From assembly GCF_030020805.1 (NCBI RefSeq), contig NZ_CP125098.1:1902001-1966000 (forward strand): 64,000 nt of DNA, in the 5' to 3' direction. Each line of letters starts with the position of its first letter. Position 1 is the first letter of the stretch. Of the stretch, positions 10,058-57,305 are shown one piece after another. The position numbers and the translations under genes were made by a program. This DNA is from Paenibacillus sp. RC67 (GTDB lineage Bacteria; Bacillota; Bacilli; Paenibacillales; NBRC-103111). A model generated the notes under the pieces. The model searched no databases. It saw only the letters and a program-made list of their open reading frames with translations, and was not told the DNA's origin.

Positions 10058-10305
10058 TCAAATCCGAATTTCAATGATCGGGACAGTAGTTAATTGATTT
10101 CAGTCGCAGCGAGCCGGGAGGGTGAAAGCCGGTACGAAGTCATTAGTGAAGCGGACCCGCGAGATGGCCTTTTGAACCAAAGTAGGAAGGCCCGGCTGAA
10201 GACCGTTATCTTATAAGGTGGTTAAACCTGTGGTTTAACAACAAGAGTGGTACCGCGAGCACAAAGTCCTCGTCTCTTAACAGAGATGTGGACTTTTTTT
10301 GTTGT
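10058..10305 (+). promoter_or_regulatory. T-box leader of argS, specifier CGG (Arg)
   Basis: T-box core TGGTACCGCG lies at 10248-10257, then a terminator stem (AAAGTCC with GGACTTTTTTT). In Stem I the loop-E strand AGTA is at 10085-10088 and the opposing GAA at 10148-10150. The upper helix TTAAT/ATTAG and the lower GGG/CCC pair enclose a loop whose bases after GAA-G are CGG (10152-10154) followed by A. CGG is an arginine codon and matches the downstream gene. The specifier is my inference from manual folding; the T-box itself is clear. Confidence 0.85.
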
Positions 10306-10350: not shown

Positions 10351-12210
10351 ATGCTAAGTCAATTTATGATAGGTAATCTGGAAAGATCGTTAAAAGGGCT
10401 GTTGGAGGAGCTGGGAGCAGCTTGGAACGAAGGAATTAAAATTACGCTGGAACAGCCTGCCCAATTGGAGCATGGCGATTATTCGACTAACATCGCGATG
10501 CAGCTGGCTAAGGTGCTGCGTAAACCGCCGATGCAAATCGCAGATTTGTTGATCAAGAGGCTGGAGCAGGACGGCTCTATGGAGCGTCTAGTTTATAAAA
10601 TAGAAGCTGCCTCGCCCGGGTTCATCAATCTGTTTTTGGATTGGAAGCAGTGGGCTGTTAAGTCATTTGCAATGCCGGCGTTAAAAGGGGAAAAGGTTGT
10701 TATCGAGCATACCTCGATTAATCCTAACAAATCCGCCCATATCGGGCATTTAAGAAATTCTTGTATCGGCGATGCACTGGTAAAGCTGCTTAGGAGAGTG
10801 GGATATGAGGTAGAGGTTCATAATTATATTGACGATCTCGGCAATCAGTTGGCAGATACCGTCGTCGGACTTCAGCATACGCAGCTGCACAAAAGTCATG
10901 CCCGGTTCGGTGATTTTTGCTGGGATGTTTATTCTCAAATCAATAAGGAATATGCGAAAAATCCTCAACTGCTCGAGCAGCGTACTCATGTGCTGCATGC
11001 TTTGGAGGAAGGGGACTCGAATATTGCCTGGATAGGACTCTTGGTCGCGGAGCGAATAGCACGCGAGCATGTAGAAGAAATGAAACAGTTCGGCATCGAA
11101 TACGACCTGCTCGTTTGGGAAAGCAGTATCGTCAGGGAAGGCTTCTGGGCTTCCGCTTTTGAGCTGTTGAAGCAAACACCGCTTTTCTACAAGGAAACGG
11201 AAGGGAAGCTGGCAGGATGTTGGGTATTGAAACAGCCTATGGGTACAGAGGATCAGGAGTCAGAGCATCAGATCGATAAAGTGTTGGTTCGCTCTAACGG
11301 CATCTTAACTTATACCGCTAAGGATATTGCATATCACCTTTGGAAATTTGGACTGCTCGACAAAAGCTTCCTATACAAGCCGTTCGGAGATAAGTTGTGG
11401 ACGACCCATACTACCGGAAAGGTAGAGCCGTTCGGCCAGGCGGGGATGGTGATCAATGTCATCGACCATAGGCAGCAGTACCCACAAGCGATGGTAAAGC
11501 AGGCGCTGGAGGCCTTGGGATTCAACGAGCAGGCCGATAAGCTGCGGCATGTAAGTTATGGTGTCGTATCGCTTAGTCCGAATGCTGCAGCGGAGCTGCA
11601 AATCGATACATCGGACGGAAAAGCATCTTATGCTATGTCAGGACGTCAGGGCATAGGGATTAAAATAAGCGATCTGCTGAGTCTAATGGAGGAAGTGATC
11701 GATAACAAAAGATCCGATAAAGAGGGGCTGTCCAGTAAAGATATAGCAGCGGCTGCCATCAGGTATTATTTGCTCCGTTTCAACCTTCAGACGGAAGTGG
11801 TGTTCGATTTGCAGCAGGCCACCGAAATATCTGGAAATACGGGTGTGTATTTATTGTATTCCTACGCTCGTGCTGTCCGCGTGTTGGATAAAGCCGTACA
11901 GGAATTGGGTATAGCTCCGACCATACCTGAACAATTTCCTGCTATGGAAAATCAAGAGTACGCTTTGATAAGACATCTGTCGCATTGGGAAGAAACCTTG
12001 TACACGGCAAGCAAAGAGCTGACTCCGAATATCATTTGTAATTATGCGCATGAAATGGCTACGTTGTTCAATCATTTCTATGCGGTGTGCGCCATTCTGA
12101 AGTCGGGAGAGGAGAGTAGACAATTCCGAATTTGGCTTGTATCCCGTTATAAAGAGGTGCTCGGCGATGCGCTGAGGGTGCTGGGATTGCCGACTCCGAG
12201 CCGAATGTAA
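10351..12210 (+). CDS. argS: Arginyl-tRNA synthetase (long, T-box controlled form)
   Basis: Class I synthetase charging tRNA-Arg. At 619 aa it is longer than the usual Bacillus ArgRS of about 556. The N-terminal Add-1-like domain includes LEHGDYSTNIAMQLAK. The HIGH-type motif NPNKSAHIGHLRNSCIGD lies near residue 130. The catalytic core has YTAKDIAYHLWKFG, and MSGRQGIGIK near residue 430 stands at the KMSKS-equivalent site. The C-terminal DALR anticodon domain has VYLLYSYARAVRVLDKA. GGAGGG precedes ATG 10351. Control by a T-box and the divergent length suggest an inducible second copy or an acquired version; whether another argS exists cannot be seen here. It is followed by the 12234-12446 repeat element. 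Confidence 0.92.
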   Translation: MLSQFMIGNLERSLKGLLEELGAAWNEGIKITLEQPAQLEHGDYSTNIAMQLAKVLRKPPMQIADLLIKRLEQDGSMERLVYKIEAASPGFINLFLDWKQWAVKSFAMPALKGEKVVIEHTSINPNKSAHIGHLRNSCIGDALVKLLRRVGYEVEVHNYIDDLGNQLADTVVGLQHTQLHKSHARFGDFCWDVYSQINKEYAKNPQLLEQRTHVLHALEEGDSNIAWIGLLVAERIAREHVEEMKQFGIEYDLLVWESSIVREGFWASAFELLKQTPLFYKETEGKLAGCWVLKQPMGTEDQESEHQIDKVLVRSNGILTYTAKDIAYHLWKFGLLDKSFLYKPFGDKLWTTHTTGKVEPFGQAGMVINVIDHRQQYPQAMVKQALEALGFNEQADKLRHVSYGVVSLSPNAAAELQIDTSDGKASYAMSGRQGIGIKISDLLSLMEEVIDNKRSDKEGLSSKDIAAAAIRYYLLRFNLQTEVVFDLQQATEISGNTGVYLLYSYARAVRVLDKAVQELGIAPTIPEQFPAMENQEYALIRHLSHWEETLYTASKELTPNIICNYAHEMATLFNHFYAVCAILKSGEESRQFRIWLVSRYKEVLGDALRVLGLPTPSRM

Positions 12211-12213
12211 GGA

Positions 12214-12231
12214 GGAGCCCTTGAGGGCTCC
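12214..12231 (+). terminator. Hairpin directly after argS (first copy of a duplicated terminator stem)
   Basis: GGAGCCC-TTGA-GGGCTCC starts 3 nt after the argS stop and lacks a T-run. A near-copy of the hairpin (12451-12468), with a T-rich tail, lies on the other side of the repeat element. Confidence 0.6.
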
Positions 12232-12233
12232 TT

Positions 12234-12446
12234 AGATTGTCGAGAAACCTGTAAAACTTGAAATATTGCTAGTATGCTCCGGTGGGGTATGCCTCTCCGG
12301 CCGCTTGTTGTTCTTGGGAAATTTTCAATTTTATTCGCTTTACAGCGGGGATTTCCCAAGAACAAAGGCGGACGCTTTCGCTCCTCCGAGGCATACCCCA
12401 CCTACCCATATAGCAAATTTCTCGAAGAAACAGGTTTAACGACAGA
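12234..12446. repeat. Structured dispersed repeat, copy 1
   Basis: A 213 bp imperfect inverted repeat after argS. Outer arms pair in order: AACCTG/CAGGTT, TTGAAATATTGCTAG with ATAGCAAATTT, and GTGGGGTATGCCTC/GAGGCATACCCCAC. The inner arm TTGTTCTTGGGAAAT (12308-12322) pairs perfectly with 12351-12365. The outer parts are nearly identical to 50695-50897, while the inner arm and loop are unrelated to that copy. No plausible protein is encoded. It could be a MITE-like mobile element or a structured RNA; no mobilising enzyme is in the window. Confidence 0.8.
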
Positions 12447-12450
12447 CTCA

Positions 12451-12485
12451 GGAGCCCAAGAAGGCTCCCATTACATTTTTTATAT
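12451..12485 (+). terminator. Terminator after repeat copy 1
   Basis: GGAGCC-CAAGAA-GGCTCC (12451-12468) followed by CATTACATTTTTT. It is nearly the same stem as the hairpin at 12214-12231. From here to 12608 I see nothing else. Confidence 0.65.
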
Positions 12486-13916: not shown

Positions 13917-13944
13917 GATAATTATTTTCTGAATATTGTAATAA

Positions 13945-14195
13945 CGATGAAGAGGAACAGTAGCTGATAACTTGAATGTCAGAGAGCCCATGACGGTGGA
14001 AATTGGGTATTCGAGCCTAGCGAAAGAAGCCTTGGAGTATCGGACCGAAAAGTAGGAGTAAGTCCGGCGGGTCTTCCCGTTATAGGAGAGGCGCTTAATC
14101 TAAGCGCTGTGAGAGGGTTGCAATCAACCAATGCAGGTGGTACCGCGGAAGCTCTAGCCTTTCGTCCTTAGAGGATGAGGGGCTTTTTGTCATAT
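13945..14195 (+). promoter_or_regulatory. T-box leader of gltX, specifier GAA (Glu)
   Basis: T-box core TGGTACCGCGG lies at 14138-14148, then a hairpin ending GGGGCTTTTTG. In Stem I the loop-E strand AGTA (13959-13962) faces GAA (14022-14024). The helix CTTGAAT/ATTCGAG and the GCT/AGC pairs lie above, AGG/CCT below. The bases after GAA-A are GAA (14026-14028) then G, a glutamate codon that matches the gene. Specifier assigned by manual folding. Confidence 0.85.
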
Positions 14196-14223: not shown

Positions 14224-15897
14224 ATGATGAAGAACACGGGGCTTGCTAATCTTTTGTTTCCTGATGTCCATCTTTCCCGTAAAGATATCATCGCCAAGTA
14301 TCCGGCAAGGCAGCTAAACGGAGCGGCCAAGGTGACCCGATTTGCTCCAAGTCCTACCGGCTTTTTGACGATTGGGGGACTGTACGCTACCTTTATTTCC
14401 GAAAGGCTGGCCCATCAGAGCGGCGGCGTCTTTTACCTTCGAATAGAGGATACGGACAAAAAACGAGAAGTTGAAGGAAGCATCGAAGGAATCGTTCAGG
14501 CGCTGGACTATTTCGGAATCCACTACGATGAAGGGGTTACTTCCGCAGGAGAGACGGGGGATTACGGACCCTACAAGCAGAGTGATAGAGCCGAAATCTA
14601 TCGGGTGTTCATAAAACATCTTGTAGAACAGAACCTTGCGTATCCTTGCTTTTGTGACACTGAAACCTTGCAGGACATTAGGAACGCTCAACAGTCCCAT
14701 AATGAAATGACCGGATACTACGGGAAATGGGCGATTCATCGCAGCTTTACACTTGAACAGGTGCAGGAGGAGCTGGCAAAAGGGAAGCCGTTTGTCGTCC
14801 GTTTGAAATCGCCTGATTCCCTCGAGCATAAAATCCGGTATACCGATTTGGTCAAAGGCGACATAGAGCTGCCTGAGAATGATCAGGATATCGTCATTAT
14901 GAAGGCCGATGGCATTCCGACGTATCATTTTGCGCATGCGGTCGATGATTTTCTGATGGGAACTACACACGTGATACGAGGTGATGAGTGGTTATCTTCC
15001 ATACCGATTCATGTGCAGCTGTTCGAAATGCTCGGATTTAAAAGGCCAGAATACGGCCATCTGGCACCTATTATGAAGATGGACGGTCAATCCAAACGTA
15101 AATTCAGCAAGCGCAAAGATCCTGACGCCGCGGTACATTATTATCAACAGGAAGGGTATCCGAGAGAAGCGATAACGGAGTATTTCATGACGCTTGTGAA
15201 CTCCAATTATGAAGAGTGGAGAATGCAGCATCCTACCGAGCCGTTCAGCTCCTTTTCTATCGATACGAGCAAAATGAATGTTAGCGGGCCGCTGTTTGAT
15301 ATGGATAAGCTTCATGACATCAGCAAAAATGTTATTGCCCAGATGAATGAGGCTGAAGTGTTTGAGCAGGTCGCAAAATGGGCTCAAATGTATCATTCGG
15401 AACTGTACCAGCAGATAATCAACCAACGGGAATATACCGTTCGCATATTGGGAATCGGTAAGGATACTGTTAAGCCGAGAAAGGATTTTGCCAAATGGTC
15501 GGATATCCCGGCTGCTATCGCTTATTTCTTTGATGAGGCGTACGAGGCTGATGCCTGTGACGTCTCGGAATCGCTGCCAGCGGCGGCTCCATTGCCCATA
15601 GCCCAGCAAATCGTTCAAGCTTACTTAGAAATCTACAACACTCCGGATGACCGAGAAATCTGGTTCGACAAAATGAAGCAGGTTGCTGACCAATTCGGTT
15701 TTGCCAAGGACACGAAAGCTTACAAGAAGCAGCCGGAGCACTATAAAGGGCATGTGGGTGATGTGGCCATGGTACTGAGGCTTGCCTTATCCAAACGAGC
15801 CCATACTCCCGATTTGTACGATATGATGCAGGTTATGGGTGAAAGCAGGGTCCGCAGCCGGTTGAGCCTTTTTACCCACATGGTTCGGAATGGCTAG
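14224..15897 (+). CDS. gltX: Glutamyl-tRNA synthetase (long form, altered HIGH motif)
   Basis: Class I synthetase, 557 aa, longer than the usual bacterial GluRS of about 485. The catalytic start reads VTRFAPSPTGFLTIGGLYA at residues 38-56. The family normally has HIGG or HVGG here, so the first His of the HIGH motif is Thr49. FYLRIEDTDKKREVEGS follows. The KMSKS equivalent KRKFSKRKDPDAA lies near residue 290, and the C-terminal part is a helical anticodon-binding domain. The length and FSKRKDP resemble the clostridial-type GluRS. It is T-box controlled and overlaps the next gene by 8 bp. Specificity (Glu, or also Gln) is not certain. Confidence 0.88.
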   Translation: MMKNTGLANLLFPDVHLSRKDIIAKYPARQLNGAAKVTRFAPSPTGFLTIGGLYATFISERLAHQSGGVFYLRIEDTDKKREVEGSIEGIVQALDYFGIHYDEGVTSAGETGDYGPYKQSDRAEIYRVFIKHLVEQNLAYPCFCDTETLQDIRNAQQSHNEMTGYYGKWAIHRSFTLEQVQEELAKGKPFVVRLKSPDSLEHKIRYTDLVKGDIELPENDQDIVIMKADGIPTYHFAHAVDDFLMGTTHVIRGDEWLSSIPIHVQLFEMLGFKRPEYGHLAPIMKMDGQSKRKFSKRKDPDAAVHYYQQEGYPREAITEYFMTLVNSNYEEWRMQHPTEPFSSFSIDTSKMNVSGPLFDMDKLHDISKNVIAQMNEAEVFEQVAKWAQMYHSELYQQIINQREYTVRILGIGKDTVKPRKDFAKWSDIPAAIAYFFDEAYEADACDVSESLPAAAPLPIAQQIVQAYLEIYNTPDDREIWFDKMKQVADQFGFAKDTKAYKKQPEHYKGHVGDVAMVLRLALSKRAHTPDLYDMMQVMGESRVRSRLSLFTHMVRNG

Positions 15898-50668: not shown

Positions 50669-50692
50669 GGTATCTTCTGTAATAGAGGATGC
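50669..50692 (+). terminator. Hairpin directly after the dehydrogenase gene (first copy of a duplicated terminator stem)
   Basis: GGTATCTTC and GAGGATGC pair around TGTAATA, without a T-run. The sequence is an imperfect copy of the functional terminator at 50900-50930 on the far side of the repeat. Confidence 0.55.
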
Positions 50693-50694
50693 TC

Positions 50695-50897
50695 AGATTG
50701 TGGAGGAACCTGTAAAGCTTGAAATATTGCTAGTATACTCCAGTGGGGTATGCCTCTCCAGCCGCTGTTGAAATCCATGAATCTTATTAGAATTTAGTGG
50801 TATATTCACAGATTTCAAAGGCGGACGTAAACTCCTCCGAAGCATACCCCACCTACCTATATAGCAAATTTCTCGCAAAACCAGGTTTCTCGTCAGA
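50695..50897. repeat. Structured dispersed repeat, copy 2
   Basis: A 203-bp element nearly identical in its outer arms to 12234-12446: AACCTGTAAAGCTTGAAATA, GTGGGGTATGCCTCTCCAGC, then GCATACCCCACCTACC and ATAGCAAATTTCTCG. The inner arm TTGAAATCCATGAAT (50768-50782) pairs with 50804-50818 (13 of 15 pairs) but has no sequence relation to the inner arm of copy 1. Confidence 0.8.
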
Positions 50898-50899
50898 AA

Positions 50900-50944: not shown

Positions 50945-52423
50945 TTATTCATTCGTTGGCTGCGAGGTATCCACGCCATAGTGTGGAGTAATCACGAATG
51001 CCTGACAGCGTCGGATTTCATTCGAATCTATAGGTCGTAGGTGCAGCACACCCTCGTGGTCGCGATTTAATGTTAGCGCAAGTCCTGTCGCACGATGCAG
51101 GATATTAAACCATCCTGCATGCTCGTCGTCCTTAACGATGTTCCAATGCTGAGTAGAGTGGTCAGCTGCCTCTTGAAGCTGAACCATAAGGTGCACACTG
51201 GCATCCGAGTCCGAGTCAGCGGTATTTGAAGATTTGGCTTCTAAGCATTTGGCTCCAATTTTATCTCTTATTCGGACATAACCGTCCTCAATTTCCTCAA
51301 TGATCCAATGCTGATCGACCGAGTCATAGGATAGCTTCTGTGCCGTGATGCATGCCGCAGGGGGTTCCTTTTTCGCTGATGCCTTCACATCAGCAGAATC
51401 TTCAGATGCAGAGAAGGCTGATGACGCCAAGTAACGGTACGACCGGTTCATTATGCGCGAGAAGCTGCTGCTTTCCTGACTAGTATGAACCGTACCTTCT
51501 TCAAGAGCAATGCTCACCTTATCGGCCCAGTTGAGCTTCATCGACTTGTCGTGGGGAAACTGGATTGGCAGGATTACATAGGAGGAACGATAGTAATCCG
51601 ATGGGTCCCAACGGTCACCGACGTACATATAGCTGGTCGTCATGCTCCCTGTAATAGGGAGGATATAGGTCGGCTGTGTATCGAACGTGGTCGGTCCGCC
51701 GAAATCGTGAAGCATCGACCAATTCCCTGTCAAGCTATCTGAATAAGCGTATTTTCCTTGATTGGGCTCCCACCCCGTGCAGCCCGAGGTGACCATAAAG
51801 TAAACGCCGTTTCGTTTCATGACCGCCGGGGCCTCACGATACTGTCCAGGCCATAATGTTCTTACATGCTCGTCGATCGACATGTAGTCTTCACTTAAAC
51901 GATAAATGTGCAAGTCCGCATTTTCTCTTGCAGCCGAAATAAAGTAACCGGTGCCGTCATCATCCACGAAGAGTGTGCAGTCCCGAGACATGAACCCTTC
52001 GGGATTGAAGCTGCCGTGATAAGTATAGTTCCCGTCAATTGTATCGCAAGTGGCGACAGCACAGCGGGCTGCTGCGTAATTGGCTCCGTTCTCCCAGTGC
52101 ATCCACATGACATATCGCTTAGTGGGCGCGTGATAGATGACCTTCGGTCTTTCAATATTGGCGCCTCGGTTCGTTTCGGTATCGGTGATAATCTCGGGAT
52201 CCGAGCGAACATCGATCGCACGAAATGGAGAATCGAGTGTCAGCACATCACCCCGAAATTCCCAGTCCATAAGATTAGAAGAGCGATAGCATGAAACGCG
52301 CTTGTGTCCTCGTCTGTTTTCGCCGAACCAATATACGTAATTTCCAGATTGAAGCAATCCGCCTCCATGGGCGTGAATCGGTTGGCCGGATGTGTCCGTC
52401 CATTGCGAGCCGTTAATTAGCAT
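50945..52423 (-). CDS. GH43-family glycosidase with C-terminal ricin-type lectin domain
   Basis: A 492-aa protein without an obvious signal peptide. The five-bladed GH43 propeller (about 1-310) shows HAHGGGLLQSGNYVYWFGEN, NIERPKVIYH, SRDCTLFVDDDGTGYFIS and GQYREAPAVMKRNGVYFMVT, which resembles the exo-beta-1,3-galactanase-like subgroup. The last 130 residues (HWIIEEIEDGYVRIRDKIGA, STQHWNIVKDD) form a beta-trefoil lectin module. GGAGGAAC lies before ATG 52423. It follows a binding-protein gene and faces pectin-degradation genes, suggesting action on arabinogalactan or rhamnogalacturonan side chains. Confidence 0.82.
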   Translation of the reverse strand: MLINGSQWTDTSGQPIHAHGGGLLQSGNYVYWFGENRRGHKRVSCYRSSNLMDWEFRGDVLTLDSPFRAIDVRSDPEIITDTETNRGANIERPKVIYHAPTKRYVMWMHWENGANYAAARCAVATCDTIDGNYTYHGSFNPEGFMSRDCTLFVDDDGTGYFISAARENADLHIYRLSEDYMSIDEHVRTLWPGQYREAPAVMKRNGVYFMVTSGCTGWEPNQGKYAYSDSLTGNWSMLHDFGGPTTFDTQPTYILPITGSMTTSYMYVGDRWDPSDYYRSSYVILPIQFPHDKSMKLNWADKVSIALEEGTVHTSQESSSFSRIMNRSYRYLASSAFSASEDSADVKASAKKEPPAACITAQKLSYDSVDQHWIIEEIEDGYVRIRDKIGAKCLEAKSSNTADSDSDASVHLMVQLQEAADHSTQHWNIVKDDEHAGWFNILHRATGLALTLNRDHEGVLHLRPIDSNEIRRCQAFVITPHYGVDTSQPTNE

Positions 52424-55073: not shown

Positions 55074-57305
55074 ATGGTTATGCAAAGGAATAAGCGATTC
55101 AAAAAAGCAGGACATGCACTTGTAAGCGCAATATTATTGGGGGCATTAGCTGCACCGCTCCATGCGGGGGCGGCTTCTCCAAGTACGGCAGGTACTTCTT
55201 CTACTCAAAGGCAAATGGAATATTTGGATCGGGGTCTCGTGGCTGTGAAAGTAGATTCCGGTGTATTTGTCAGCTGGCGGCTGCTAGGTAACGAGCCGGA
55301 TAGCATTGCTTTTAATTTATATCGTAATGGGGTTAAGATTAATTCGGCTCCGATTACGAACAGTACGAATTATCAGGATAATTCCGGAACGAAGGATTCC
55401 AAGTATACGGTTAGAGCCATTCTGAACGGCAAAGAACAGCCAGCTTCAGAGAAGGCTAACGTATGGGACACGAACTATCTCTCTGTTCCGCTGCAGAAGC
55501 CTGCCGACGGGACGAATCCAGACGGTTCCACCTTCACATACAGCGCGAATGACGCAAGCGTCGGTGATCTGGACGGGGACGGTCAATACGAAATAATACT
55601 GAAGTGGGACCCCTCTAATTCCAAAGATAATTCGCAGGACGGCGTTACGGGGGAAGTCTTTATCGACGCTTACAAATTAGACGGGACACTATTGTGGCGT
55701 ATTTCACTTGGTAAAAATATTCGGGCGGGCGCACATTACACGCAATTTATGGTGTACGATCTGGACGGGGACGGCAAGGCGGAGGTTGCTTTCAAAACAG
55801 CGGATGGAACGAAGGATGGTACCGGTAAAGTCATTGGTGACGCGAATGCGGACTACCGTGATTTAACAGGAAGTCGTCCCGGACGAGTACTGTCAGGACC
55901 AGAGTATTTGACTATATTTGAAGGTATGACCGGCAAAGAGCTTGTCACTACGCCTTATGATCCGCCGAGAGGCAACGTGACGGATTGGGGAGACAATTAC
56001 GGTAACCGTGTGGACCGTTTCCTAGCATGTATCGCTTATCTGGACGGCAAAAGACCAAGCCTGGTTATGGCGCGCGGATATTATACTAGAACCGTGCTTG
56101 CAGCGTATAACTGGAGAGATGGTCAGCTGACGAAGCTGTGGACCTTTGACAGCAACGATGCAGGCAATGAAACCTATGCAGGGCAAGGAAATCACAATTT
56201 AAGTGTGGCTGATGTAGATGGCGACGGTAAGGACGAAATTATTTATGGCGCCATGACAATAGATGACAATGGCAAAGGCTTGTACAATACTAAACTGGGC
56301 CATGGTGACGCGCTGCATGTCGGTGATCTGGATCCGGATAGACCGGGACTGGAAGTATTCAAAGTAGATGAGGACAAAAACTCTCCATATGGTGCCGCCA
56401 TGTGGGATGCAGCTACAGGGGAAGTGCTGTGGGGCGTGTACACAGGCAAAGACACGGGCCGAGGCATGTCGGCGGATATTGATCCCAATTATAAAGGAGA
56501 AGAGGTATGGGCTTCAACCGGAGTCGGTTTGTATTCCAACAAAGGGGAAAAAATCAGCAGTACAACGCCTTCCATTAATTTTGGCATCTGGTGGGATGGG
56601 GATCTGCTTCGCGAGCTGCTGGACAATAACCACATCGACAAGTGGGATTATACGAATTTTAAAACCATTAATTTGCTGACAGCCTCAGAAGCCGCTTCCA
56701 ACAATGGTACCAAAGCGAATCCTACCTTGCAGGCGGATTTGTTCGGGGACTGGAGGGAAGAGGCAGTATGGAGAACGGAGGATAGTACAGCTCTGCATAT
56801 CTACACAACAACAGCCGTAACGGATCATCGTATCTATACGTTGATGCACGATCCGGTTTATCGCTTAGGCATTGCATGGCAAAATGTTGCTTATAATCAG
56901 CCTCCACATACAGGCTTCTATTTGGGTGAAGGGATGGATGCGCCTCCGACGCCGAACATGTATGTTGTAGTTCCAGCTGAAGTTCAAATACAACCGCAAA
57001 CCTTGAATTTGAAAAGCCATGGCGGGAGCAATTCTGTCACTGTGGATATTGAGCTTCCAGCGGGCTACGATGCTTCCACGATAGATACTTCAACCGTGCA
57101 GATGAGCGTCTACGGAAGCAAGCCAATCCGTGCTCAGGGCTCAAAGGGGCATTCTGGCAATAAAGCAGTTACCGTCAAATTTGACCGGCAGCAGCTGATT
57201 GAAGCTTTGAAAGGGCAAAATGGCAATGTCGAGGTAACCGTAACTGGTACTTTGAGAAATGGAAATACGTTCAGAGGTACTGATACATTGAAGGTCACCC
57301 AATAA
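55074..57305 (+). CDS. Rhamnogalacturonan lyase (PL11, YesW-like), secreted
   Basis: Secreted 743-aa lyase that cleaves the rhamnogalacturonan I backbone by beta-elimination. The signal peptide (HALVSAILLGALAAPLHAGA) ends near residue 34. The eight-bladed propeller contains repeated calcium-binding DLDGDGxxE loops (VGDLDGDGQYEIILK, YDLDGDGKAEVAF, VADVDGDGKDEIIYG) and HYTQFMVYD. GFYLGEGMDAPPTPNM marks the end of the catalytic part near 630. A C-terminal Ig-like domain follows. AAGGAGG lies upstream of ATG 55074. Activator is probably the divergent AraC protein. Confidence 0.92.
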   Translation: MVMQRNKRFKKAGHALVSAILLGALAAPLHAGAASPSTAGTSSTQRQMEYLDRGLVAVKVDSGVFVSWRLLGNEPDSIAFNLYRNGVKINSAPITNSTNYQDNSGTKDSKYTVRAILNGKEQPASEKANVWDTNYLSVPLQKPADGTNPDGSTFTYSANDASVGDLDGDGQYEIILKWDPSNSKDNSQDGVTGEVFIDAYKLDGTLLWRISLGKNIRAGAHYTQFMVYDLDGDGKAEVAFKTADGTKDGTGKVIGDANADYRDLTGSRPGRVLSGPEYLTIFEGMTGKELVTTPYDPPRGNVTDWGDNYGNRVDRFLACIAYLDGKRPSLVMARGYYTRTVLAAYNWRDGQLTKLWTFDSNDAGNETYAGQGNHNLSVADVDGDGKDEIIYGAMTIDDNGKGLYNTKLGHGDALHVGDLDPDRPGLEVFKVDEDKNSPYGAAMWDAATGEVLWGVYTGKDTGRGMSADIDPNYKGEEVWASTGVGLYSNKGEKISSTTPSINFGIWWDGDLLRELLDNNHIDKWDYTNFKTINLLTASEAASNNGTKANPTLQADLFGDWREEAVWRTEDSTALHIYTTTAVTDHRIYTLMHDPVYRLGIAWQNVAYNQPPHTGFYLGEGMDAPPTPNMYVVVPAEVQIQPQTLNLKSHGGSNSVTVDIELPAGYDASTIDTSTVQMSVYGSKPIRAQGSKGHSGNKAVTVKFDRQQLIEALKGQNGNVEVTVTGTLRNGNTFRGTDTLKVTQ

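What the first reader, a model, noticed from the sequence alone, without database searches (positions are those of the whole stretch)
50768..50818. Variable inner hairpin inside a conserved frame
In both repeats the outer arms are conserved, but between CCGC and AAAGGCGGACG the inner arm is unrelated in sequence (TTGTTCTTGGGAAAT versus TTGAAATCCATGAAT). Each inner arm is self-complementary over 15 nt (15/15 and 13/15 pairs). Conserved structure with exchanged sequence suggests selection for a cargo hairpin, reminiscent of retron msd regions, but no reverse transcriptase is nearby.
Basis: partly seen in the sequence, partly recalled or inferred. Interest (0 to 1): 0.72.

Follow-up and report, generated by a model that had tools for sequence, protein, structure and literature searches.

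The report
Terminator-doubling mobile hairpin with swapped core
The two hairpins are copies of a small mobile DNA element, present in at least 70 copies in this Paenibacillus-like genome, that inserts into the stop signals of genes and duplicates the whole stop-signal hairpin, so the signal survives on both sides; its inner stem exists in a few old, exchangeable versions that stay self-complementary.

Summary
The inner arms at 50768-50818 and 12308-12365 pair 13/15 and 15/15 inside a shared frame. They belong to a repeat family of about 210 bp, with at least 70 places in this 7.96 Mb genome. Almost all copies there carry one of two inner-arm types. Several copies carry one type's inner arm in the other type's frame, and one is a left/right chimera, so exchange looks like recombination. 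It is not a retron.

The element has terminal inverted repeats (TCAGAnTGTCGAGAAACC). It sits between two copies of one locus-specific terminator hairpin, that is, a target-site duplication equal to the whole stem-loop. A relative lacking the insertion after argS has a single hairpin. IS1182-family insertion sequences in related genomes share these termini. In one genome all 13 measured copies are flanked by perfect repeats of 13-45 bp, each a hairpin from foot to foot. Best reading: a MITE moved by an IS1182-type transposase that recognises hairpin structure and duplicates it. The related IS1272 is described as replacing the hairpin; duplication was only proposed as a model (Wan 2017).

Unexplained: the structured core recurs across the order Paenibacillales. 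In another family it keeps its joining sequences but has different stems and termini, hinting at a function of its own.

The parts
50669..50692 (+). left copy of the duplicated terminator hairpin (GGTATCTTCTGTAATAGAGGATGC), copy B
   Evidence: fold -9.3 kcal/mol, z -5.0; direct-repeat match to right copy
50693..50899 (+). MITE copy B (type II inner hairpin in type II frame)
   Evidence: alignment of 56 genome copies, sequence
50693..50712 (+). left terminal inverted repeat TCAGATTGTGGAGGAACCTG
   Evidence: matches MITE and IS1182 termini
50743..50753 (+). outer stem, left arm GTGGGGTATGC
50768..50782 (+). inner arm, left TTGAAATCCATGAAT
50804..50818 (+). inner arm, right ATTCACAGATTTCAA (13 of 15 pairs)
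50817..50827 (+). conserved joining motif AAAGGCGGACG
50842..50852 (+). outer stem, right arm GCATACCCCAC
50880..50899 (+). right terminal inverted repeat ACCAGGTTTCTCGTCAGAAA
50900..50925 (+). right copy of the terminator hairpin (GGCATCCTCCGTCTAAAGAGGATGCC) followed by TTTT, copy B
   Evidence: fold -15.6 kcal/mol, z -6.3
12214..12231 (+). left copy of argS terminator hairpin (GGAGCCCTTGAGGGCTCC), copy A
12232..12450 (+). MITE copy A (type I inner hairpin in type II frame)
12308..12322 (+). inner arm, left TTGTTCTTGGGAAAT, copy A
12351..12365 (+). inner arm, right ATTTCCCAAGAACAA (15 of 15 pairs), copy A
12451..12468 (+). right copy of argS terminator hairpin (GGAGCCCAAGAAGGCTCC), copy A; empty ortholog in G007 has one hairpin

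Best explanation
The feature is the core of a non-autonomous transposon (MITE) of about 207-219 bp that is, or was, moved in trans by an IS1182-family transposase. The transposase recognises intrinsic-terminator hairpins by structure and joins the element at the two feet of the stem-loop, so repair duplicates the complete hairpin on both sides. The A-tract stays on the left and the U-tract on the right, so each direction keeps a whole terminator and the insertion is nearly harmless. The inner hairpin exists as a few old subfamilies whose arms changed in compensated steps; recombination between copies at the conserved joining sequences swaps inner arms between frames. SHOWN by sequence: copy number, termini, duplicated hairpins, an IS with the same termini and the same duplications, one empty site, covariation, hybrid copies. 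INFERRED: that this transposase moved these copies, cruciform recognition and cutting at the 5' feet, harmlessness, and selection rather than arm-to-arm copying as the cause of retained pairing.
For: At least 70 places in the genome. Own left/right flank similarity averages 25.3 against 12.1 +/- 0.46 for permuted partners; 41 of 56 reach the 99th percentile of mismatched flanks. Among those 41, 23 have an A-rich tract before the left hairpin versus 0 before the right, and 33 a T-rich tract after the right hairpin versus 8 after the left. Perfect duplicated hairpins in relatives: L113 GCACCCGAATGCGGGTGC, L100, L099, and near-perfect ones in another genus (L241-L244). Empty site: after argS, G007 has one hairpin where this genome has hairpin-MITE-hairpin. 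Autonomous relative: L188, a 1557-bp IS with IS1182-type ORFs (E 3e-80 and 2e-58), termini CAGAGTGTCGAGAAACCC/CAGACTGTCGAGAAA and a perfect 24-bp hairpin duplication. G007 contig ends show the same kind of IS termini beside a 27-nt hairpin present at both ends. G027: 13 of 13 measured IS copies have perfect duplications of 13-45 bp, each folding foot to foot. Inner arms: covariation score 0.317 versus 0.116 shuffled and at most 0.080 slid; own partner beats within-type shuffled partners, 0/5000 in types I and II; hybrids L001-L005, L007, L008 and chimera L029.
Against: No intact IS1182 transposase was found in this genome (and the G000 rows), so mobilisation here is inferred. The MITE and the IS share only about 18-20 terminal bases; the core is not derived from the IS. 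About a quarter of the copies (15 of 56) lack a clear duplication, presumably decayed. Distant core carriers in another family (L343, L339) have different termini and no visible hairpin duplication, so the core is not tied to this transposase.
Confidence: 0.88

Rival explanations
1. Retron-like or other reverse-transcribed element in which the inner hairpin is an msd-type cargo.
For: Hairpin with variable inner part in a conserved frame.
Against: No reverse transcriptase among neighbouring genes; high copy number, terminal inverted repeats, duplicated target hairpins, IS with the same termini; no Rfam family at gathering scores.
Confidence: 0.01
2. The core is a functional structured RNA or single-stranded DNA motif kept by selection and carried by several unrelated MITEs across Paenibacillales; the IS1182 relation is only the vehicle in this lineage. 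(Compatible with the best explanation; it concerns why the core is conserved.)
For: Core found in 131 of 198 genomes of the order and 25 of 43 genera. In family f10 the joining sequences CCGCTG-TTGT and ACAAAGGCGG.CGCTA.CGCTCCT.CAG are kept while outer and inner stems differ and still pair. Termini differ (L343 TATATAGATTGAACTT, 16/16 inverted repeat). Compensated changes within single types.
Against: No known RNA family even at relaxed threshold, no expression data; compensated changes can also come from copying one arm of a palindrome from the other; vertical or horizontal descent could explain the conserved joining sequence.
Confidence: 0.3
3. The repeats are REP/BIME-type palindromes moved by a RAYT (Y1) transposase.
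For: High-copy intergenic palindromes with mosaic structure.
Against: Target duplications of 13-45 bp at the matching IS and duplicated hairpins at the MITE; about 210-bp units with terminal inverted repeats; matching DDE-family IS. A RAYT gene was not searched for.
Confidence: 0.03
4. The double hairpins are not a transposition product but part of the element or a convergent arrangement of two terminators.
For: Both hairpins fold well on their own.
Against: Hairpin sequence is unique to each locus yet alike on both sides, the empty argS ortholog has one, and the IS shows perfect duplications of varying length.
Confidence: 0.02

Closest known systems
IS1272 / TnSha1 (IS1182 family) of staphylococci
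   Same: IS1182-family transposase, targets terminator-like hairpins without sequence consensus, insertion at the hairpin foot (PMC4923244, PMC5678879).
   Different: IS1272 is reported to delete or replace the target hairpin and to give no target duplication; here the whole hairpin is duplicated. Wan 2017 drew this outcome only as hypothetical pathway b.
IS1182-family members reported to target palindromes
   Same: Family assignment by NF033551 and palindromic targets; both papers above cite Siguier 2015 for this.
   Different: The review itself and ISfinder could not be read here, so whether whole-hairpin duplications are already tabulated is unknown.
Structured bacterial MITEs such as BOX, SPRITE, RUP (S. 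pneumoniae) and bcr1 (B. cereus)
   Same: High-copy, non-coding, strongly folded mobile repeats between genes (PMC10969869; bcr1 from memory).
   Different: Other sequence and termini; terminator-hairpin duplication and a covarying core shared across an order are not described for them in what I read.
Group IIC introns
   Same: Insert at terminator hairpins (from memory).
   Different: Retroelements with an intron-encoded protein; no terminal inverted repeats, no target duplication.

Membership tests
MITE (miniature inverted-repeat transposable element) | short, non-coding, multi-copy | tested here: met
   about 207-219 bp, at least 70 places
MITE (miniature inverted-repeat transposable element) | terminal inverted repeats | tested here: met
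   TCAGAnTGTCGAGAAACC / GGTTTCTCGACAGACTCA
MITE (miniature inverted-repeat transposable element) | target-site duplication and empty site | tested here: met
   duplicated hairpins, empty argS site in G007
MITE (miniature inverted-repeat transposable element) | mobilised in trans by an autonomous element | not testable with these tools
   matching IS found in relatives (L188, G007, G027) but no intact copy in this genome
Non-autonomous partner of IS1182 family | shared termini with an IS1182-type IS | tested here: met
   L188 CAGAGTGTCGAGAAACCC, G007 TCAGATTGTAGAGAAACCCATG; NF033551 E 3e-80
Non-autonomous partner of IS1182 family | same target type and duplication | tested here: met
   hairpins duplicated by both MITE and IS
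IS1272-type stem-loop replacement | target hairpin removed, no duplication | tested here: not met
   hairpin duplicated in 13 of 13 G027 IS copies and in most MITE copies
Retron | reverse transcriptase gene beside msr-msd | tested here: not met
   flanking genes are a Zn-dependent dehydrogenase and GH43 (copy B), arginyl-tRNA synthetase and a metallo-beta-lactamase fold protein (copy A)
REP/BIME with RAYT | REP-type unit and Y1 transposase | not tested
   RAYT gene not searched; terminal repeats and duplications argue against
Known RNA family (Rfam 15) | match at gathering score | tested here: not met
   none for the element in the window; relaxed search gave only chance-level hits

The most novel reading that the evidence does not exclude
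A previously undescribed structured nucleic-acid module, with fixed joining sequences and freely exchanged but always paired stems, is kept by selection across the order Paenibacillales and carried by MITEs with unrelated termini; in this lineage it rides a transposon that duplicates whole terminators and so places the module in 3' untranslated regions without breaking termination.
Probability: 0.3. Interest if true: 0.78.

Novelty: new variant of a known kind. Interest (0 to 1): 0.6.

Why it matters
Transposases usually give target duplications of fixed length. Here the duplication runs from 13 to 45 bp and equals the target stem-loop, which is natural evidence for target choice by DNA structure. 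It is the outcome that the IS1272 authors drew only as a possible pathway. It also gives a simple reason why such elements can reach high copy number: the insertion copies the terminator it hits. The order-wide core with covarying stems makes a hidden, testable RNA or DNA motif plausible.

Tried and rejected
Rfam scans at gathering and at relaxed threshold gave nothing for the element. PF13751 and NF033551 in the own genome gave only weak fragments. A scan of the species genomes for the exact terminus found no autonomous IS; the IS was found through its transposase instead. The first arm-pairing script was off by one base and is superseded. The first flank comparison cut the left hairpin short and is superseded. 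Alignment A2 mixes strands and was not used for counts. The labels of L024 and L007 as mixed inner types are artefacts of the text pattern; both are type I by sequence. L159 (G011), an IS1182 3' fragment fused to a MITE left arm, was first taken as the autonomous element but is a truncated chimera. The Siguier reviews are not held in the paper library and ISfinder is not available here.

Full report
OBSERVATION. Copy B: arms 50768-50782 and 50804-50818, 13 of 15 pairs. Copy A: arms 12308-12322 and 12351-12365, 15 of 15 pairs. Random 15-mers from the window average 5.8 pairs and reach 13 in 0.02% of draws. AAAGGCGGACG occurs exactly twice in 64 kb with none expected. Folding of the copy B region is far better than shuffles (z -6.05 as RNA; z -7.4 for the whole element as DNA).

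GENOME-WIDE COPIES. The window lies in a single 7.96 Mb contig (G000). Searches with both copies and with fragments give 71 merged places (merged); several are partial, and the tools score at most 32-40 candidates per search, so this is a lower bound. Two inner-arm types account for nearly all of them: type I GTTGTTMTYGGGAAAT and type II GTTGAAAYCCRTGAAT. The outer frame also has two versions (GTATCCCC/GGGGATAC and GTATGCCC/GGCATAC). Most copies combine I with I or II with II, but seven (L001-L005, L007, L008) carry a type I inner hairpin in a type II frame, L006 and L009 are mixed, L029 has a type I left arm and a type II right arm, and L065 has a type II hairpin with a type I right-hand linker. 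Copy A of the window is one of the hybrids, which is why its frame matches copy B while the inner arm does not. Recombination at the shared joining sequences is the simplest account.

PAIRING IS RETAINED. On 48 copies, 19 of 29 pairs show changes on both sides with pairing kept. Paired cells are 96.5% versus 84.3% in shuffles and at most 54% when partners are slid; the covariation score is 0.317 versus 0.116 shuffled and at most 0.080 slid. Part of this reflects the two-type split, so I tested within types: own partners pair better than shuffled partners of the same type (type I 14.57 versus 13.61 of 15; type II 13.67 versus 13.08; 0 of 5000 shuffles in either), while type I left arms with type II right arms give 8.76. 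Single copies show their own compensated steps, for example L048, L064, L250, L252. This is expected under selection for pairing, but copying one arm of a palindrome from the other during repair would give the same pattern; I cannot separate the two.

THE ELEMENT. Alignment of 56 copies with flanks extends the conserved part to terminal inverted repeats TCAGAnTGTCGAGAAACC (left) and GGTTTCTCGACAGACTCA (right). Immediately outside, each copy has a terminator-like hairpin on both sides; its sequence differs between loci but is alike left and right. The mean direct similarity of own flanks is 25.3 against 12.1 +/- 0.46 for permuted partners (maximum of 10,000 permutations 14.6); 41 of 56 copies reach the 99th percentile of mismatched pairs. 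In those 41, an A-rich tract precedes the left hairpin in 23 and the right one in none, and a T-rich tract follows the right hairpin in 33 and the left one in 8. The element therefore sits as A-tract, hairpin, MITE, hairpin, T-tract. In another genus of the family similar termini (GAGCTTGTTGAGAAACCC) and duplicated hairpins occur (L241-L244).

EMPTY SITE. Downstream of argS, window copy A reads hairpin GGAGCCCTTGAGGGCTCC, MITE, hairpin GGAGCCCAAGAAGGCTCC. G011 has an independent insertion between copies of a different hairpin further downstream. The empty site for copy B was not sought.

THE TRANSPOSASE. The own genome has only weak IS1182-type fragments. Related genomes hold the likely autonomous relatives. 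L188 (G004) is a 1557-bp IS with two ORFs matching the IS1182 transposase model (E 3.3e-80 and 1.6e-58; split near the middle, by decay or a frameshift), termini CAGAGTGTCGAGAAACCC and CAGACTGTCGAGAAA, and a perfect 24-bp duplication ACTTCCCTTATGTCTAAGGGAAGT lying between an A-run and a T-run. Contig ends in G007 show IS termini TCAGATTGTAGAGAAACCCATG and TCAGGCTGTCGAGAAA beside hairpins; one 27-nt hairpin appears at both ends of what should be one insertion. G027 has 15 IS copies about 62% identical in protein to L188. In the 13 that could be measured, a perfect direct repeat of 13 to 45 bp flanks the IS and folds as one stem-loop, foot to foot, in every case. Duplication length follows hairpin length, which points to recognition of structure.

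COMPARISON WITH THE LITERATURE. IS1272, an IS1182-family element of staphylococci, targets terminator hairpins but is reported to delete or replace them without duplication (PMC4923244; PMC5678879). Wan et al. 2017 drew a hypothetical 'pathway b' in which joining at the 5' feet of the stem-loop would duplicate the whole stem-loop. The present elements behave as pathway b predicts. Both papers cite Siguier 2015 for IS1182 members that target palindromes; I could not read that review or ISfinder. From memory, ISfinder lists long, variable duplications for the family, so the duplication itself may be partly tabulated already. I found no description of this MITE in the papers searched.

WHY IT IS HARMLESS (inference). 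Because the junctions fall at the feet of the hairpin, the A-tract side and the T-tract side each keep a complete hairpin, so termination should survive in both directions, and the MITE should be transcribed as part of the 3' untranslated region. This was not tested.

THE CORE BEYOND THIS LINEAGE. A covariance model of the core finds it in 72 of 104 genomes of the family and 131 of 198 sampled genomes of the order, 25 of 43 genera. In family f10 (G139, G198), 800 kb of sampled sequence (a little of it from G165) gave ten matches. There the joining sequences CCGCTG-TTGT and ACAAAGGCGG.CGCTA.CGCTCCT.CAG are kept almost letter for letter, but outer and inner stems have other sequences and still pair (13-14 of 15 in the inner arm). 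Where checked the termini differ: L343 has a perfect 16-bp inverted repeat TATATAGATTGAACTT and L339 a weaker TATATAAGACGCATTTAA, and no hairpin duplication is visible. So the same structured core is carried by elements with at least two kinds of termini. This is the part I cannot explain; a function of the core as RNA or single-stranded DNA is possible (I give it about 0.3).

VERDICT. The conserved frame with exchanged, self-complementary inner arms is real. It is the core of a mobile repeat, not a retron. The mobile element is a new variant of a known kind, notable for doubling the terminator it hits; the order-wide covarying core is the open question.

Noticed in passing
window 10065-10280 and 13938-14172: Two T-box leaders lie upstream of an argS gene (10351-12210) and a glutamyl/glutaminyl-tRNA synthetase-like gene (14224-15897).
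   Followed up: no
L194, L197, L200, L202, L205, L208, L211 (G011): A MITE subfamily carries a second small palindrome (AGGCTTCCGAAGC..GGCTTTGC..GCAAAGCCC) nested beside the inner stem.
   Followed up: partly
L159 / L187 (G011:C30 158809-159600): The 3' part of an IS1182 transposase gene is fused to a MITE left arm plus the nested palindrome; a truncated chimera.
   Followed up: partly
L226 (G011, downstream of argS): An independent MITE insertion flanked by copies of a different hairpin (GAGCCCAGCAGGGCTC / GAGCCCAACAGGGCTC) near the same gene end where this genome carries copy A.
   Followed up: partly
L343 12984-13198, L339 1423-1637: Core relatives in another family sit in elements with other terminal inverted repeats (TATATAGATTGAACTT and similar), suggesting other transposases.
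   Followed up: partly
L188 1479-2839: The IS1182 transposase of G004 is split into 190-aa and 257-aa ORFs near the middle; decay or a programmed frameshift.
   Followed up: no
window 50945-52423: GH43 family protein with a C-terminal ricin-B-like lectin domain, in a carbohydrate-utilisation neighbourhood with an RGL11 rhamnogalacturonan lyase at 55074-57305.
   Followed up: no
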